Below, piece by piece: positions 32,069 through 37,504 of a stretch of DNA of 37,504 nt. Every line of letters starts with the position of its first letter. The first letter of the stretch is position 1. The translations under genes were made by a program, and so were the position numbers. The DNA comes from Chromatiales bacterium (GTDB lineage: Bacteria > Pseudomonadota > Gammaproteobacteria > Thiohalomonadales > Thiohalomonadaceae). Where the stretch lies: the NCBI GenBank assembly GCA_003251535.1, contig QKFD01000125.1, positions 1-37,504 on the forward strand. Reading direction: 5' to 3'. Under the pieces are notes generated by a model. It had not been told where the DNA came from. It was given only the letters and a program-made list of their open reading frames with translations, and did not search any database.

Positions 32069-32435
32069 GGGGGCGACATGGCTTCGACGTGGGTCGCAAA
32101 ACCTAAGGTGCATGCCGAGGTGCGGTGCCCTCGTTAAACACGCTGCAAACTTACAGACGCCAACGACGACGTCTACTCTCTCGCCGCTTAAGGCGTGAGC
32201 CTTCGCCCGGGTGTGCCTGTACGCCCGGAGCCCCGCAAGGGGCATCGGGGGTCATCTCATACAGGATCGCGAGGGGGTTCCTGGCCCGGGAATGCCCAGC
32301 TAAAACCAACGGGCTCGCCGTCTGTCTTCCCTGCCCGTCGGGTAGCAGCCGGTTAAATCAATCGACCGGGCTAAGCATGTAGAGCCGAGGGCGGAGGGCT
32401 TACGGACGCGGGTTCGATTCCCGCCGCCTCCACCA
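32069..32435 (+). ncRNA. ssrA: tmRNA (SsrA)
   Basis: Transfer-messenger RNA that rescues stalled ribosomes and tags the unfinished protein for proteolysis. The 5' end GGGGGCGACATGGCTTCGAC is typical. The acceptor stem pairs GGGGGCG (32069-32075) with CGCCTCC before the encoded ACCA at 32432-32435, with one G-U pair. The T-arm is GGTTCGATTCC. The tag frame at 32159-32191 encodes ANDDVYSLAA. The intervening region fits pseudoknots PK2-PK4 by position. Length is 367 nt, in the normal range for one-piece tmRNA. The 3' end borders the accessory island. Confidence 0.96.
32159..32191 (+). CDS. tmRNA proteolysis tag peptide ANDDVYSLAA
   Basis: Translation resumes at GCC (32159-32161) and stops at TAA (32189-32191), encoding ANDDVYSLAA. 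The LAA end is the usual ClpXP and ClpAP degron. The middle residues VYS differ from the commoner ENYA and DNYA of gammaproteobacteria. The resume codon is chosen by its place in the conserved ACAGACGCC context. Confidence 0.85.
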   Translation, partial: ANDDVYSLAA

Positions 32436-33045: not shown

Positions 33046-33258
33046 ATGGATAAAATCGACAAATGGCTGACCATTGATGAACTGGCGGGCTACATCAAGA
33101 TGAGCCGGACCAAGCTCTACGGCATGGCCCAGCGCGGCGAGGTTCCTGCCTCGAAGATCGGCACCCAGTGGCGTTTCGACCGGGAGGAGATCGATCAGTG
33201 GATGAAGGCGCACGCGACCGGAAATGTCGGAGCTGACAATAAGGACAAGAAGCAATGA
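33046..33258 (+). CDS. Excisionase-family/HTH DNA-binding protein
   Basis: A 70-residue protein with a MerR-like winged helix of the excisionase (HTH_17) type: WLTIDELAGYIKMSRTKLYG, then GEVPASKIGTQWRFDREEID and a short basic tail. Such small proteins act either as recombination directionality factors or as regulators in front of type I restriction operons. The second is favoured because the gene overlaps the hsdM derivative by 4 bp (ATGA at 33255-33258). GGTGAGG lies a few bases before the ATG. No integrase is visible for it to serve. Confidence 0.85.
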   Translation: MDKIDKWLTIDELAGYIKMSRTKLYGMAQRGEVPASKIGTQWRFDREEIDQWMKAHATGNVGADNKDKKQ

Positions 33259-33884
33259 ACGGTGAAACCCACAGCCAACTGGCCCACTTTATCTGGTCCA
33301 TCTGCAACCTGCTGCGCGGCCCCTACAAGCGCAACGAATACCGCAAGGTCATCCTGCCGCTGACGGTCCTGCGCCGCTTCGAGTGCCTGCTGGAGCCGAC
33401 TCGCCAGGCCGCCCTTGAAGCGTTCCCGTCGCTGAAGACCAAGCCCGAGCGTGTCCAGCAGGCACGGTTGCAGCAGATTACCGGCCACCGCTTCTACAAG
33501 CTGACCCTGCGCGAGGTGGATCGGGCAAGAAACGTCAAACTCTCCACCCCCGAGCTGAAGGCGGTGCTGGTGGCCCTGGGCGAACGCGACGAGAGCGCCG
33601 AGATCTGTCGCGACAAGCGGGGCGAGCCGGAGCCGGACAGCGACCTGCGCGACACCGAAACCGTGCCGCTCAAGGAGGAGAACGAGGAGTACTTTCGGCG
33701 CGAGGTGCTGCCCCACGTGCCCGACGCCTGGATCGACCACGCCAAGACCAAGGTCGGCTACGAGATCCCCCTCAACCGCCACTTCTACCGCTACGATCCG
33801 CCGCGCGAGCTGGAGGAGATCGAGGCCGAGATCAAGGGGTTGGAGGGGGAGATTCTGGAGCTGCTGAGAGAGGTGACGGCGTGA
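33255..33884 (+). CDS. HsdM-derived protein lacking the methyltransferase core
   Basis: A 209-residue protein. Residues 1 to about 85 match the N-terminal helical domain of type I restriction methyltransferase subunits (LAHFIWSICNLLRGPYKRNE, ILPLTVLRRFECLL). Residues about 97-209 match the extreme C-terminus (VALGERDESAEICRDK, VLPHVPDAWIDHAKTKVGYE, then EEIEAEIKGLEGEILELL). Full-length relatives have roughly 650-700 residues. The S-adenosylmethionine site and the NPPY/F catalytic motif are absent, so it cannot methylate DNA. The join lies near residues 85-97 and keeps the frame. N- and C-terminal ends are the parts that contact HsdS and HsdR, so a structural or dominant-negative role is conceivable. 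It overlaps both neighbours by 4 bp. Confidence 0.85.
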   Translation: MNGETHSQLAHFIWSICNLLRGPYKRNEYRKVILPLTVLRRFECLLEPTRQAALEAFPSLKTKPERVQQARLQQITGHRFYKLTLREVDRARNVKLSTPELKAVLVALGERDESAEICRDKRGEPEPDSDLRDTETVPLKEENEEYFRREVLPHVPDAWIDHAKTKVGYEIPLNRHFYRYDPPRELEEIEAEIKGLEGEILELLREVTA

Positions 33885-35350
33885 GCATCGACCGGCCGGA
33901 AAGCGCGCTCCCCGGCATCTTGAACGAGCTGCGGAAGCTACCCCGCGAAACCGAATGGGTGGAGTTCAAGCACAACAATGCCGAGCCGGATGAGATCGGC
34001 GAGTACCTCTCCGCCTTGGCCAACGCCGCCGCCCTGATCGGCAAGGTAAGCGCCTGGCTTGTCTGGGGCCTGGATAACGGAACCCACGAGATCATCGGCA
34101 CCACCTTCAACCCGGCATCAACCAAGGTCGGCAACGAGGAGTTGGAAAGCTGGTTGCTGCGCCTGCTCTCGCCCAAGATCAACTTCCGCCTTTATGCCTT
34201 TGAGGCCAAGGACAAACCGGTCGTCCTGCTGGAGATCGGCGCGGCCTTCCGCCACCCGGTGCAGTTCAAGGGCACCGAATACATCCGCATCGGCTCCTAC
34301 AAAAAGAGGCTGAAGGATTTCCCGGAAAAGGAGCGTGAGCTTTGGCGGGTATTCGACCGCACCCCCTTTGAAAAGGAGATTGCCGCCGAAAGCGTCGCCG
34401 CCGAGGAGGTGCTCAAGCTGCTCGACTATCCGGCCTATTTCGACCTGCTCTCCCTCCCGCTACCCGAAGGCCGGGAGGGCATTCTGGCCGCCCTGGCGGC
34501 CGACGACATGATCGCCCCGGGCAAAGGCGGCAAATGGGATATCACCAACCTGGGGGCCGTGCTGTTGGCCAAGCGGCTGGCCGATTTCCGTACGCTTGCG
34601 CGCAAGGCGGTGCGGGTGGTGCAGTACAAAGGCGCAGGCCGGGTGGAGACGATTCGCGAGCAAGTGGGCGCCAACGGGTACGCTGCCGGCTTCGAGGGGC
34701 TGATCGGCTCCGTCACCAACCTGCTGCCCAGCAACGAGGTGATCGGCCAGGCCCTGCGCAGGCAGGTGCCCATGTTCCCGGAACTGGCCATCCGCGAGCT
34801 GGTGGCCAACGCCATCATCCATCAGGATTTCCACCTCACCGGTACCGGGCCCATGGTGGAGATCTTTGCCGACCGCATGGAGATCACCAACCCCGGCCTG
34901 CCGCTGGTGCAGACCGACCGCTTTCTCGACAGCCCGCCCCGCTCCCGCAACGAGGCGCTGGCCTCCTTCATGCGCCGCATTGGCGTCTGCGAGGAGCGCG
35001 GCAGCGGCGTGGACAAGGTCGTCTCCCAGACCGAGCTCTACCAGCTCCCCGCACCGCTCTTCGAAACCACGGATGAACACACCCGTGCCGTGCTCTTCGC
35101 CCACCGTGAGTTGAAGGAGATGGACAAGGCCGATCGTATCCGTGCCTGCTACCTGCACGCCTGCCTGCGCTACGTGCAACGGGACTATATGACCAACACC
35201 ACCCTGCGGGAACGGTTCGGGATCGACGAGAAGAACAGCGCCGTGGCCTCCCGCTTGATCAAGGATGCGCTGGATGCCGGTCTGATTGTCCCCTATGACG
35301 AAAAGGCCGGGCGTAAATACATGAAATACCTGCCAGGATGGGCCAGATGA
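33881..35350 (+). CDS. AlbA/Schlafen-domain ATP-binding protein
   Basis: A 489-residue protein. The N-terminal AlbA_2 (Schlafen-like) domain spans about 20-145, with ETEWVEFKHN and FKGTEYIRIGSYKKRLKDF. A GHKL-type ATP-binding domain (HATPase_c_4) follows: FPELAIRELVANAIIHQDFH near 298-318, MEITNPG near 332 and CEERGSGVDKVV near 370. A C-terminal winged-helix part covers about 420-489. Members, often annotated as transcriptional regulators or RecG-like, are common inside type I restriction and other defence loci; AlbA-like folds bind RNA or DNA. The start GTG at 33881 overlaps the upstream stop in GTGA. The enzyme seems intact. Confidence 0.88.
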   Translation: MSIDRPESALPGILNELRKLPRETEWVEFKHNNAEPDEIGEYLSALANAAALIGKVSAWLVWGLDNGTHEIIGTTFNPASTKVGNEELESWLLRLLSPKINFRLYAFEAKDKPVVLLEIGAAFRHPVQFKGTEYIRIGSYKKRLKDFPEKERELWRVFDRTPFEKEIAAESVAAEEVLKLLDYPAYFDLLSLPLPEGREGILAALAADDMIAPGKGGKWDITNLGAVLLAKRLADFRTLARKAVRVVQYKGAGRVETIREQVGANGYAAGFEGLIGSVTNLLPSNEVIGQALRRQVPMFPELAIRELVANAIIHQDFHLTGTGPMVEIFADRMEITNPGLPLVQTDRFLDSPPRSRNEALASFMRRIGVCEERGSGVDKVVSQTELYQLPAPLFETTDEHTRAVLFAHRELKEMDKADRIRACYLHACLRYVQRDYMTNTTLRERFGIDEKNSAVASRLIKDALDAGLIVPYDEKAGRKYMKYLPGWAR

Positions 35351-35598
35351 GCAAGCGACTTTTATTTGACGGTCATTTGATGGATAGCCCCTTCTCGCTG
35401 GGGTATGTCAGCGTTAACTGCCGCAATAACAAGGGGTTAGTCCTGTGGGGTTTATTTGATGGTTATTTGACTGAGAGGGGCTTCCTAAGTTGGGCCAGAG
35501 CGGCGATGGGCCCACGGAAAACACTGAAAGACATGGACGGGGTTTCTCGGTTCAGTGAGTTCCGTGCCTTCCGCGAACGGAAAAGGGGACTGGCATGA
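35347..35598 (+). CDS. Small operon ORF with repeated LFDG[HY]L motif
   Basis: An 83-residue frame. The ATG at 35347 overlaps the upstream stop (ATGA 35347-35350), and its own stop overlaps the hsdS start (ATGA 35595-35598), which supports real translation. An ATG three codons earlier is also possible. The protein reads LLFDGHLMDSPFSLGY near the start and VLWGLFDGYLTERGF 30 residues later; the underlying DNA repeats 18 of 20 bases at 35361-35380 and 35451-35470, exactly 90 bp apart and in frame. The C-terminus is strongly basic (RFSEFRAFRERKRG). No family is recognised. It may instead be a repeat-bearing spacer whose frame is open by chance. Confidence 0.5.
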   Translation: MSKRLLFDGHLMDSPFSLGYVSVNCRNNKGLVLWGLFDGYLTERGFLSWARAAMGPRKTLKDMDGVSRFSEFRAFRERKRGLA

Positions 35599-36980
35599 GG
35601 CATCCGGCGTATCCCGAATACAAAGAGAGCGGCGTCCAGTGGCTCAGGCAGGTGCCGGGGCATTGGGAGGTGAAGCGGCTGAAATACTCAGCCACGATAA
35701 ATGATGAAGCCTTGCCGGAAACGACTGACCCAGACTTTGAGTTCAGCTATGTCGATATCGGCAGCGTGAATCCGGTAGAAGACATCACGAACATGGAAAC
35801 AATGACTTTTGAAAATGCTCCTTCAAGGGCACGGCGTAAGGTCGCGCCGGGAGATACGATTGTTTCCACGGTCCGAACTTATCTTCGAGCAACTGCTCCC
35901 ATTCTAGAATCCGCCGAAACCCTTATTGTTTCAACAGGATTTGCGGTCATTCAGCCTAGAAAATTGCTCTCAGGTTTTCTGGCGTATGCGCTACGAGAGT
36001 CTTCTTTTGTCGAAAGCGTTGTCGCGCGATCGACAGGGGTCAGCTATCCAGCTGTGAATGCTTCAGAGATTGGCGACATTGCGATCCCATTACCCTCTGA
36101 AGATGAACAAACCGCCATCGCCGACTTTCTCGACCGGGAGATGGGGCGGATCGATACGCTGGTGGCGAAGAAACGGCGACTGATCGCGCTGCTCAAGGAG
36201 AAGCGCACCGCGCGCATCTCCCGCACCGTTACCTGTGGCCTGCCCGCAGACGCCGCCCGCGAATTCGGCCTCGAACCCCACACCCGCTTCAAGGATTCCG
36301 GCATCGAATGGCTTGGTCAGGTGCCGGAGGGGTGGGAGGTACTGCCGTTCACAAAATTTGTTAATGACAAGTCGGACTATCGAGGCAAAATGCCAGAGAA
36401 AACAGATAATGGCATCTTTCTTGTGACGGCGAAAAATGTCCAGATGGGTTTCATCGATTATGAGACGTCTAAAGAGTACGTTGCCGAAGAAGATTACGAT
36501 GCAATCATGCAGTGAGGCCTGCCAAAGTTAGGCGATATTCTCTTTACAACAGAAGCACCATTGGGGAATGTTGCGCTTGTAGACAATGAAAACATTGCGA
36601 TGGCCCAACGAATAATTCGCTTCCGGATGACAGCAGCCAGATTCGAATCCAAGCTCACACTCTATGGCATGATGTCAGATCATTACCAAAATCAGCTTAA
36701 AAGCCTATCCACAGGCTCGACTACCGAGGGAGTGAAGGCCAGCAAACTCACAATATTGAGATCAATTTGTCCTCCTCTCCCGGAGCAAACCGCCATCGCT
36801 ACCTACCTCGACTGCGAAACTACCAAGATAGACAAACTGGTGGAGAAGGTCGATGCCGCCATCTCCCGCTTGCAGGAGTACCGCACCGCCCTGATCACCG
36901 CCGCCACCACCGGCAAGATCAGTGTGCGCAATCAAGAAACGAACAGAGGAGTACGCCATGCGTCTGCTGCACTACCTTGA
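35595..36980 (+). pseudogene. hsdS: Type I restriction specificity subunit HsdS, split by TGA
   Basis: One continuous frame of 461 codons is interrupted only by TGA at 36513-36515 (codon 307). Before it lie the first target-recognition domain (about 1-170), the conserved coiled-coil spacer EDEQTAIADFLDREMGRID (about 170-208) and the start of the second recognition domain (FKDSGIEWLGQVPEGWEV). After it come LPKLGDILFTTEAPLGNVA and the second coiled coil with PEQTAIATYLDCETTKIDKL. Relatives usually carry Arg at the stopped codon (MQ-R-GLPKLGD), so CGA to TGA is the likely mutation. The first half could still yield a half-HsdS, a form known to dimerise in some systems. The ATG follows AGGGG and overlaps the upstream ORF. 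It overlaps the next gene by 23 bp. Confidence 0.88.
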
Positions 36981-37308
36981 AATCCAGAACTTCAAACGGT
37001 TTGGCGACAAGCAACGCATTGAACTCGACCATCCTGCCGTGCTGATCGGACCGAACAACTGCGGCAAGACAACGGCCATTCAGGCGATCGCGCTCTGGTC
37101 GCAGGCGGTCAAGACATGGCTGGATGCCAAACGCAATTCCAGCGCCAAGGAGCGTACCGCCACAGCACTCAACCGTTTGAATATCGTCGCTGTGCCAGTG
37201 CAGCGTACCCGTTACTTTTGGCACAACACCCATGTGCGTACCGGCAGCATGGATATCCCGCTGCTGATTACCTTGGGCGTGATGCATGACAACAAGGTCG
37301 AGCCCTGA
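36958..37308 (+). pseudogene. AAA-family ATPase, N-terminal part only, cut by an IS
   Basis: The 116-residue frame begins MRLLHYLEIQNFKRFGDKQ, has the Walker A motif IGPNNCGKTTA (about 30-40) and then DIPLLITLGVMHDN. This is the start of an SMC/OLD-like ATPase (AAA_15/AAA_21 type) normally several hundred residues long, with Walker B, signature and often nuclease parts later. All of that is missing. The stop TGA at 37306-37308 appears to be supplied by the incoming element. AGAGGAG precedes the ATG at 36958, inside the end of hsdS. Similar ATPases accompany type I restriction loci. Confidence 0.8.
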
Positions 37309-37504
37309 GGAATCCCCACGAATTCTTGACCTAACTTGTTGAATAAATTATGCGGTAGGAGTGGCGTACATCGGAAAAACATGATCTCCTAGAGGCGCCA
37401 ACCTAACGAGGAGAACGCCGATGCACGCCACCGACCTGATTGAGACCCACATCCGCCCGCATTGTCAATCGCTTCACAAGAAGCGCTTCGATGTGCTCCC
37501 GATC
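37303..37504 (+). mobile_element. Left end of an insertion sequence, probably IS4-like
   Basis: The ATPase match stops near 37303, and 37309-37420 is non-coding with a ribosome site before a new start codon. The terminal inverted repeat cannot be delimited because the right end is outside the window. GAGGAATCCCC near 37307 is a candidate tip. Confidence 0.5.
37421..37504 (+). CDS. IS4-like transposase, N-terminal fragment at window edge
   Basis: The ATG at 37421 follows CGAGGAGA. The 28 visible residues begin MHATDLIETHIRPHC and continue with SLHKKRFDVL. This resembles the N-terminus of some IS4-family transposases, in which a short helical DNA-binding part precedes the DDE domain. Too little is visible to see catalytic residues or to be certain of the family. 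The gene runs off the right edge. Confidence 0.5.
   Translation, partial: MHATDLIETHIRPHCQSLHKKRFDVLPI

What the first reader, a model, noticed from the sequence alone, without database searches (positions are those of the whole stretch)
33046..35598. Five genes chained by four exact 4-bp overlaps
HTH regulator/mini-HsdM (ATGA 33255), mini-HsdM/AlbA ATPase (GTGA 33881), ATPase/small ORF (ATGA 35347) and small ORF/HsdS (ATGA 35595) all overlap by four bases. Such uniform coupling argues that the set was selected as one stoichiometric unit, including the unknown small ORF. A type I derivative with a Schlafen-type ATPase, HsdS and an OLD-like ATPase is a candidate for an undescribed defence or regulatory system.
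Basis: partly seen in the sequence, partly recalled or inferred. Interest (0 to 1): 0.6.

Follow-up and report, generated by a model that had tools for sequence, protein, structure and literature searches.

The report
Schlafen regulator with its own DNA switch
A broken bacterial anti-virus gene cluster still holds one intact protein that, by comparison with its relatives, most likely grips a matching double DNA landing site placed directly behind its own gene, which makes a widespread but poorly understood defence protein testable as a DNA-bound controller.

Summary
The four 4-bp overlaps are real, but the five genes are not a selected machine: HsdM lacks its methylase core, HsdS has an in-frame stop, the OLD-like ATPase is cut at an IS, and no cognate HsdR was found in the assembly. 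It is a wrecked type I restriction locus near tmRNA. Intact and interesting are the Schlafen-GHKL-winged-helix protein and the DNA behind it. The 'small ORF' lies over a conserved element: pairs of 11-bp direct repeats (TTTRYTTGAYSGTTRYTTGAYKG), two pairs usually 86-90 bp apart, otherwise near multiples of 11. A strict pair follows the stop codon in 77 of 83 loci, window included. The base two before TTGA covaries with wing residue 478 (R/K in 31 of 34 A-class, 0 of 40 G-class loci; all 12 base changes on a tree coincide with residue changes); the few independent further loci agree. So the protein most likely binds its own 3' element. Because hsdR or hsdS often comes next, I propose a DNA-anchored controller and backup RNase of type I systems: binding strongly supported, regulation inferred. 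The protein family is known; I found no description of the element in the papers searched.

The parts
32069..32435 (+). tmRNA gene beside the island
   Evidence: ARAGORN; a tmRNA also lies in the fetched loci L030 and L041
33046..33258 (+). HTH_17 / excisionase-type DNA-binding protein (70 aa)
   Evidence: Pfam HTH_17 2e-15; NCBIfam MAD1 model 66 bits, below its cut-off of 80; PADLOC mad1 33.7 bits; no significant match upstream of hsdM in 7 relatives
33255..33884 (+). HsdM remnant (209 aa): N-terminal 84 and C-terminal 129 residues joined in frame, methylase core absent
   Evidence: matches L027 HsdM 1-84 and 579-707 of 707; NPPF at residue 299 of L027 HsdM has no counterpart
33881..35350 (+). 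Schlafen AlbA_2 - GHKL ATPase - winged-helix protein (489 aa), intact
   Evidence: Pfam SLFN_AlbA_2 1.5e-17, HATPase_c_4 2.8e-23; E23, E28, K30, E306, N310 invariant in 60 aligned sequences; AlphaFold2 mean pLDDT 88.2, pTM 0.69
35126..35341 (+). codons of the C-terminal winged helix (residues about 416-487); wing residues R478 and Y480 at 35312-35320
   Evidence: model: helices 416-432, 439-446, 450-465, strands 469-471 and 483-485; covariation; residues read
35364..35385 (+). operator-like pair 1: two 11-bp direct repeats ATTTGACGGTC ATTTGATGGAT
   Evidence: at least one strict pair after the stop codon in 77 of 83 loci, window included
35454..35475 (+). operator-like pair 2: ATTTGATGGTT ATTTGACTGAG, 90 bp after pair 1
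   Evidence: the pattern TTGAYNGNYNNTTGAYNG occurs only at these two places in the 4.6-Mb assembly
35386..35453 (+). spacer between the pairs; in the 40 loci (window included) with 86-90 bp spacing A/T content repeats every 10.5-11 bp
   Evidence: 0 of 1000 shuffles reach the observed power at 10.5 or 11 bp; these 40 spacings were picked by eye
   Evidence: frame open between the pairs in 6 of 7 frame-compatible loci of the hsdM-ATPase-hsdS group (expected 2.7, loci related)
35595..36980 (+). HsdS broken by an in-frame TGA at 36513-36515 (306-aa piece, then 154-aa piece)
36958..37308 (+). N-terminal fragment of an AAA_15/OLD-like ATPase (116 aa)
   Evidence: AAA_15 2e-9; PADLOC matches to NsnB, AriA, GajA and Old; ends where IS-like sequence begins
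37296..37504 (+). start of an IS-like element with matching stretches on contigs C96, C97 and C3; contig ends here

Best explanation
The locus is the wreck of a type I restriction-modification island in which a Schlafen/GHKL/winged-helix protein and its DNA site survive. The protein binds, through its C-terminal winged helix, a bipartite site directly behind its own stop codon: two pairs of 11-bp direct repeats set a near-whole number of helical turns apart on phased A/T-rich DNA. Two protomers per pair, bridged or wrapped across the turns in between, would form a nucleoprotein complex. From there it controls transcription into the next genes (hsdS or hsdR in many relatives) and its own operon, while the Schlafen domain is held as a ribonuclease that can act if the complex is disturbed. 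Shown by computation: conservation, phasing and protein-DNA covariation. Inferred: the oligomer, repression, control of restriction genes, RNase activity and its trigger.
For: Strict pair within about 320 bp after the stop in 77 of 83 loci. All half-site dinucleotides identical in 22 of 43 loci with four or more half-sites, shuffle mean 0.97, maximum 6. Of 39 loci with a second strict pair, the 15 outside 86-90 bp have Rayleigh R 0.85 at 11 bp, 0 of 20,000 random sets as high. Spacer A/T period 10.5-11 bp, 0 of 1000 shuffles. Residue 478 carries the most information on the dinucleotide, then 480; R/K in 31 of 34 A-class against 0 of 40 G-class; on a tree of residues 1-425 all 12 base changes coincide with 478 changes in the matching direction, with 3 residue-only changes; best-ranked columns 478, 480, 476. 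These lie in the modelled wing. Further loci not close to the first set (under 92% identity): G-class in 3 of 3 with T at 478, in 0 of 8 with R/K. L031 and L108 are 91% identical yet differ as predicted: R478 with four AT half-sites, T478 with GC. Diverged relatives L189 and L190 carry their own different word twice, 66 bp apart. Next gene has HSDR_N in 19 and Methylase_S in 9 of 72. Schlafen glutamates aligned: E28 with E211 of SLFN14.
Against: No binding or expression data. Copies with the element lie beside genes that are not restriction genes (QueC in L070, aldose epimerase in L088 and L095), so control of restriction genes is not general. Three A-class loci lack R/K at 478 (L006, L050, L075). 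L108 has a third pair of another class (GG/AT). No -10-like hexamer is enriched at canonical spacing from the TTGAC half-sites. Six of 83 loci lack a strict pair (L043, L045, L054, L062, L073, L094), as do 7 of the 21 further loci, one of which (L182) has a looser form. Joint replacement of the gene's 3' end with the adjacent element could help create covariation, though it should not single out residues 478 and 480. The window's restriction genes are dead, so here the controller controls nothing known.
Confidence: 0.6

Rival explanations
1. Pure autoregulator and backup effector: the protein binds its 3' element only to limit its own level or park its RNase, and does not control restriction genes; it is an abortive-infection RNase carried next to many defence systems.
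For: Copies with the element whose next gene is not a restriction gene (L070, L088, L095); the same architecture is described as a backup RNase in BREX (PMC12839542, passages); active-site glutamates present.
Against: A 3' site is an odd place for simple autorepression; the next gene carries HSDR_N in 19 and Methylase_S in 9 of 72 loci.
Confidence: 0.25
2. The element is the right end (recombination site) of a small mobile cassette, protein gene plus element, and the protein acts in its movement.
For: Directly repeated flanks around gene plus element: L041 (213 nt), L053 (about 187 nt at the hsdR 5' end), L030 (175 nt), L028 (79 nt), L032 and shorter ones; short gene fragments abut the gene in some loci (L029, L053, L055, L079).
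Against: No matching left end seen; duplication length varies; no transposase or recombinase domain in the protein; helical phasing and wing covariation fit a regulator equally or better.
Confidence: 0.12
3. The element works as RNA, like a repeat antitoxin of a toxin-antitoxin system restraining a Schlafen RNase.
For: It lies directly 3' of a predicted RNase gene.
Against: No Rfam match over it at gathering score in 11 loci, and only one chance-level match (E 1.4) in the window stretch; 7 of 8 elements fold no better than shuffles, L027 z -2.3; phasing by DNA turns and covariation with a winged-helix wing point to DNA.
Confidence: 0.04
4. One reading: five genes selected as one stoichiometric defence unit with a working mini-HsdM.
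For: Four exact 4-bp overlaps; a second in-frame deleted HsdM (101 aa) exists in L032.
Against: HsdS stop, truncated ATPase, no cognate HsdR in the assembly; intact relatives have full HsdM and HsdR; L032 also has a split HsdR; HTH not conserved.
Confidence: 0.03

Closest known systems
Schlafen RNase + minimal histidine kinase + wHTH proteins of BREX and related systems (PMC12839542, passages read; it cites the preprint bioRxiv 2025.07.24.666596, not held)
   Same: Domain order Schlafen - GHKL - wHTH; linked to defence loci with methylases
   Different: Described there as a backup suicidal effector; 'operator' and 'direct repeat' occur 0 times in that text
RptR, type I RMS-proximal repressor (PMC12255303; abstract, passages and discussion read)
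   Same: Regulator tied to type I systems, binds several direct repeats, conserved with its site
   Different: 79-aa single-domain protein, 9-bp repeats with TAGCTA in the promoter upstream of its own gene; no Schlafen or GHKL domain
HsdC, controller protein of Mollicutes RM systems (PMC5282649, abstract read)
   Same: Binds direct repeats of 11-bp period, (GTGTTAN5)2, at its operon promoter
   Different: Mollicute C-protein; site at the promoter of its own operon; unrelated site sequence
DIP2311 of Corynebacterium diphtheriae (PDB 3lmm), structural genomics
   Same: Best solved relative: Foldseek E 4e-20, VIA Z 22.0 with 335 residues aligned
   Different: Function not given in the entry title; large rmsd (11.6)
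PrrC/RloC anticodon nucleases linked to type I systems (recalled; not tested)
   Same: RNase guarded by a type I system as a second line of defence
   Different: Different nuclease fold and ATPase; no DNA operator known to me

Membership tests
Functional type I restriction-modification system | HsdM with catalytic N6-methylase core (NPPF) | tested here: not met
   residues about 85-578 absent, no NPPF
Functional type I restriction-modification system | Uninterrupted HsdS with two target-recognition domains | tested here: not met
   in-frame TGA at 36513
Functional type I restriction-modification system | Cognate HsdR | tested here: inconclusive
   HSDR_N matches only on contig C119, where an unrelated HsdM lies (30% identity); the assembly is 95.6% complete and the window contig ends in an IS, so loss is likely but not proven
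Bacterial Schlafen - GHKL - wHTH family | Schlafen AlbA_2 domain with active-site glutamates | tested here: met
   E23, E28, K30 invariant in 60 sequences, aligned to E206/E211 of SLFN14; E205/E210 of rat SLFN13 needed for cleavage (PMC5862951 passages)
Bacterial Schlafen - GHKL - wHTH family | GHKL ATPase domain and C-terminal winged helix | tested here: met
   HATPase_c_4; model; histidine-kinase ATPase domains at residues 241-408 and a 67-residue ESCRT-II match at 413-489
Bacterial Schlafen - GHKL - wHTH family | RNase activity | not testable with these tools
   needs protein
C-protein-like controller of RM systems | Binds a specific repeat element in the RM locus | tested here: inconclusive
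   covariation and conservation imply it; no binding assay
C-protein-like controller of RM systems | Regulates restriction gene expression | not testable with these tools
   placement before hsdR/hsdS only
MADS (methylation-associated defence system) | MAD1, MAD3 and MAD5 proteins above NCBIfam cut-offs | tested here: not met
   HTH 66 of 80 bits; HsdS pieces 15.1 and 14.1 of 400; ATPase fragment 25.6 of 420 (the last three are broken genes)
Transposon or integron-type cassette | Two defined ends or a recombinase | tested here: inconclusive
   flank duplications but no left end seen; no recombinase domain in the protein

The most novel reading that the evidence does not exclude
A DNA-leashed ribonuclease: the Schlafen protein is kept inactive as a looped or wrapped complex on its own two-pair operator, and loss or titration of that complex during infection frees the RNase and the restriction genes together. 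Viral contigs carry the same double-pair pattern (47 stretches against 5 for a control pattern; 20 of 47 with 65-67 bp spacing; 31 of 47 inside a mechanically called ORF; no such protein found in the 25 and 28 records searched), either as the trigger the defence senses or as a decoy that titrates it.
Probability: 0.13. Interest if true: 0.85.

Novelty: new variant of a known kind. Interest (0 to 1): 0.62.

Why it matters
Schlafen-GHKL proteins of this kind are frequent neighbours of defence genes and are annotated mostly as 'ATP-binding protein' or 'RNA-binding domain-containing protein' in the plasmid records seen here. A precise cognate DNA site with a readable specificity code (wing residue 478 against the base two before TTGA) turns a vague annotation into a direct binding experiment, and offers a candidate answer to how many type I systems, which move between hosts, are switched and guarded.

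Tried and rejected
Functional mini-HsdM unit: rejected by the intact relatives and the broken neighbours. Small ORF as a conserved protein: no family; stops in L028, L032, L040 and L041; the apparent protein conservation (LFDG...LFDG) is the DNA repeat read in the one frame that each pair leaves open. Element as RNA: no Rfam match, no folding signal in 7 of 8. TTGAC half-sites as -35 boxes with a -10 at 16-18 bp: no enrichment. A -10-like peak inside the spacer coincides with the general 11-bp A/T periodicity, so I do not claim a promoter there. No match to the protein in viral contigs with the element: whole-protein profile against 25 of the 47 records, winged-helix profile against 28 of 47 (it did find the window's own gene); many records are fragments. 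Among the 47 viral stretches several are tandem arrays or near-copies of each other (for example L124, L132 and L142), so 47 is not a count of independent cases. VIA list: no named DNA-binding regulator stood out for the winged helix. Cassette or transposon reading kept as a rival. Element search over 369 genomes of the class found 7, the window's own included (control pattern 0): 4 with this protein directly upstream (window, L108, L110, L111), L106 with a diverged Schlafen-GHKL ORF, L107 after an unrelated ORF between hsdS-like and hsdM-like sequence, L109 unexplained; over 398 genomes of the phylum with another gap range, 2, the window's own included. Selection effects: the 80 relatives are the best 80 of 353 by similarity to the window protein; class assignment dropped 6 of 83 loci without a strict pair and 3 with rare dinucleotides (TA, CA, TG). 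The 54 spacings, used, were picked by eye from scored sites; the unbiased spacing count is. Further loci: of 21, 4 are near copies of loci already used (L162 100% to L064; L178 and L179 99% to L077; L181 99% to L086) and are left out of the 3-of-3 and 0-of-8 counts; with them the counts are 5 of 5 and 0 of 10. Among the 8, L183 and L184 are 98% identical, L185 and L186 are 82-87% identical to these and to each other, and L182 was scored on a looser motif. In one search L008 and L010 showed the 66-bp repeat no better than shuffles, L009 was equalled by 1 of 40 shuffles, and L011, L187, L188 and L192 showed none.
Full report
OBSERVATION. The four overlaps are exact. Overlaps of this kind are common: 67 of 508 adjacent same-strand ORF pairs in the 80 related loci have them. 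The genes themselves are another matter. The mini-HsdM equals residues 1-84 plus 579-707 of the 707-residue HsdM of L027, with the NPPF methylase core missing. HsdS is interrupted by an in-frame TGA at 36513. The OLD-like ATPase is a 116-residue fragment that stops where an IS-like sequence begins, and the contig ends in it. HSDR_N is found in the genome only on contig C119, the contig of an unrelated HsdM at 30% identity. The island lies beside tmRNA; the fetched stretches of L030 and L041 also hold a tmRNA. It is a decayed type I locus.

RELATIVES. The Schlafen-type ATPase is common: 353 candidate stretches encode relatives, of which the best 80 were fetched. Loci with the same hsdM-ATPase 4-bp coupling carry full HsdM and a downstream HsdR wherever the flank reaches and the genes are unbroken (L027, L030, L038, L040, L041: 5 of 5). 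L032 is a second wreck, with a 101-residue HsdM remnant and a split HsdR. In other loci the ATPase gene follows hsdS and precedes hsdR (for example L046, L051, L092). Across the loci the first ORF behind it has HSDR_N in 19 of 72 and Methylase_S in 9 of 72; the ORF before it has Methylase_S in 19 of 70 and N6_Mtase in 10 of 70 (ORFs of at least 100 aa chosen mechanically, except that the hsdS ORF of L038 was put in place of its leader ORF and the hsdM ORF of L030 was added by hand). Annotated plasmids show similar orders: hsdM-hsdS-ATPase-hsdR on pAQ3 of Picosynechococcus, hsdS-ATPase-hsdR in Acidovorax, hsdR-hsdM-ATPase-hsdS in Aliarcobacter, and a DUF1156 anti-phage protein, the ATPase and a phospholipase-D-like anti-phage protein in Desulfosarcina BuS5.

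THE ELEMENT. The region read as a small ORF holds a repeat that recurs behind the ATPase gene in relatives, in different frames and often with stops. It is a pair of 11-bp direct repeats, TTTRYTTGAYSGTTRYTTGAYKG (consensus from 121 sites), often present twice. Of 39 loci with a second strict pair 40-125 bp on, 24 are at 86-90 bp and the others fall at 56, 66, 76-78, 99-101 and 108-111 bp; those 15 alone have Rayleigh R 0.85 at 11 bp, not reached in 20,000 random sets. The spacer's A/T content is periodic at 10.5-11 bp in 40 aligned loci, 0 of 1000 shuffles. Eight elements were folded as RNA: seven have z between -0.5 and +1.2, one -2.3. This looks like DNA contacted on one face.

WHO BINDS IT. 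The two bases before TTGA (AT 26, GC 26, GT 14, AA 6 and five singletons among 77 loci) tend to be the same in all half-sites of a locus: 22 of 43 loci with four or more, against a shuffle mean of 0.97. Among the columns of the ATPase alignment the most informative about this dinucleotide are residues 478 and 480. R or K stands at 478 in 31 of 34 loci whose first base is A and in 0 of 40 whose first base is G. On a tree built from residues 1-425 only, the base changes 12 times, each time together with residue 478 and in the matching direction, with three further residue-only changes; when every column is split in two by its own best rule, the best are 478 (11 of 12), 480 and 476. The AlphaFold2 model (mean pLDDT 88.2) places them in the wing of the C-terminal winged helix. 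Twenty-one further loci were looked at: six lack the motif, four are near copies of loci already used, and the remaining eleven agree: G-class in 3 of 3 with T at 478 (L108, L110, L177) and in 0 of 8 with R or K, of which several are related to each other and one was scored on a looser motif. The sharpest contrast is L031 and L108, 91% identical proteins: R478/F480 with four AT half-sites against T478/A480 with GC half-sites (L108 has a third pair of another class). Diverged relatives extend the architecture: L189 and L190 carry a different word twice, exactly 66 bp apart, just behind the stop codon (16 of 16 and 14 of 16 identical, 0 of 40 shuffles as good); L009 is similar (1 of 40), L008 and L010 no better than shuffles though also at 66 bp, four others show none. 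An arginine or lysine wing with an A-T pair and a small side chain with G-C makes structural sense (inference).

FUNCTION. The protein keeps the Schlafen glutamates (E23, E28; E28 aligns with E211 of SLFN14, the residue named as mutated in the title of PDB 9uie, and E205/E210 are required in SLFN13, PMC5862951 passages) and the GHKL asparagine N310. It is therefore a probable RNase with an ATP-binding domain and a DNA anchor. Its anchor lies between it and the next gene, often hsdR or hsdS. The simplest model is a nucleoprotein complex that regulates the transcript running into those genes and its own operon and keeps the RNase in check; binding I hold at about 0.85, control of restriction genes at about 0.5. 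In the window only the controller and its site remain intact.

THE SMALL ORF. Each pair leaves one reading frame open, and the frames match at spacings divisible by three. In the ten hsdM-ATPase-hsdS loci 7 of 10 spacings are of this kind and 6 of these 7 are open between the pairs (expected 2.7, p about 0.013, loci related); these six run on to an ATGA or GTGA before hsdS (in L025 the contig ends there). So a coupling leader in this subgroup is possible; outside it, 5 of 18 are open (expected 3.1).

LITERATURE. Searches for Schlafen/AlbA with restriction systems, COG2865 and the Pfam names, type I regulators with repeats, and bacterial Schlafens (listings seen, passages read in a few) showed no description of this element. 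PMC12839542 (passages) describes Schlafen - kinase-like - wHTH proteins near BREX core loci in at least 1017 taxa as backup RNases and cites a preprint I could not read. RptR (PMC12255303; abstract, passages, discussion) and HsdC (PMC5282649; abstract) are precedents for repeat-binding regulators of RM systems; HsdC's repeat also has an 11-bp period.

VERDICT. The reported five-gene unit is a wreck; the real find is a regulator-effector with a coevolving, helically phased DNA site in a widespread defence-linked family.

Noticed in passing
L115-L161 (viral contigs): The double-pair pattern occurs in 47 viral stretches against 5 for a control pattern; 20 have 65-67 bp spacing; 31 lie inside a mechanically called ORF (29 of them antisense, as expected from the stop codons), four in ORFs over 1200 aa with GC-type sites (L133, L136, L146, L154); no matching protein was found in the records searched.
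   Followed up: partly
L041, L053, L030, L028, L032, L038, L067, L098, L050: The ATPase gene plus element is flanked by direct repeats (213 nt of hsdM 3' end in L041, about 187 nt at the hsdR 5' end in L053, others shorter or weaker), as if acquired by insertion or recombination.
   Followed up: partly
L032:7699-8004: A second HsdM with its core deleted in frame (101 aa) sits before the ATPase gene, with hsdR split in two ORFs behind: decay that spares the ATPase and element recurs.
   Followed up: partly
L107: In genome G126 the element lies between hsdS-like and hsdM-like sequence after an ORF that looks DUF3800-like (labels from memory), with no such ATPase adjacent; the genome has a weaker match to the ATPase profile elsewhere (residues 214-396, E 4e-16).
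   Followed up: partly
L029, L055, L079: Fragments resembling Fic or RhuM-type genes (names partly from memory; one Fic-like_C match) abut the ATPase gene through ATGA overlaps.
   Followed up: no
window 37296-37504; L002, L003, L004: The IS-like end of the contig has matching stretches on C96, C97 and C3 of the same genome; beside the C3 stretch lies an ORF that looks caspase-like (label from memory).
   Followed up: no
window 32069-32435; L030:2220-2579; L041:1605-1958: Three of these type I islands have a tmRNA gene nearby, a possible shared integration site.
   Followed up: no
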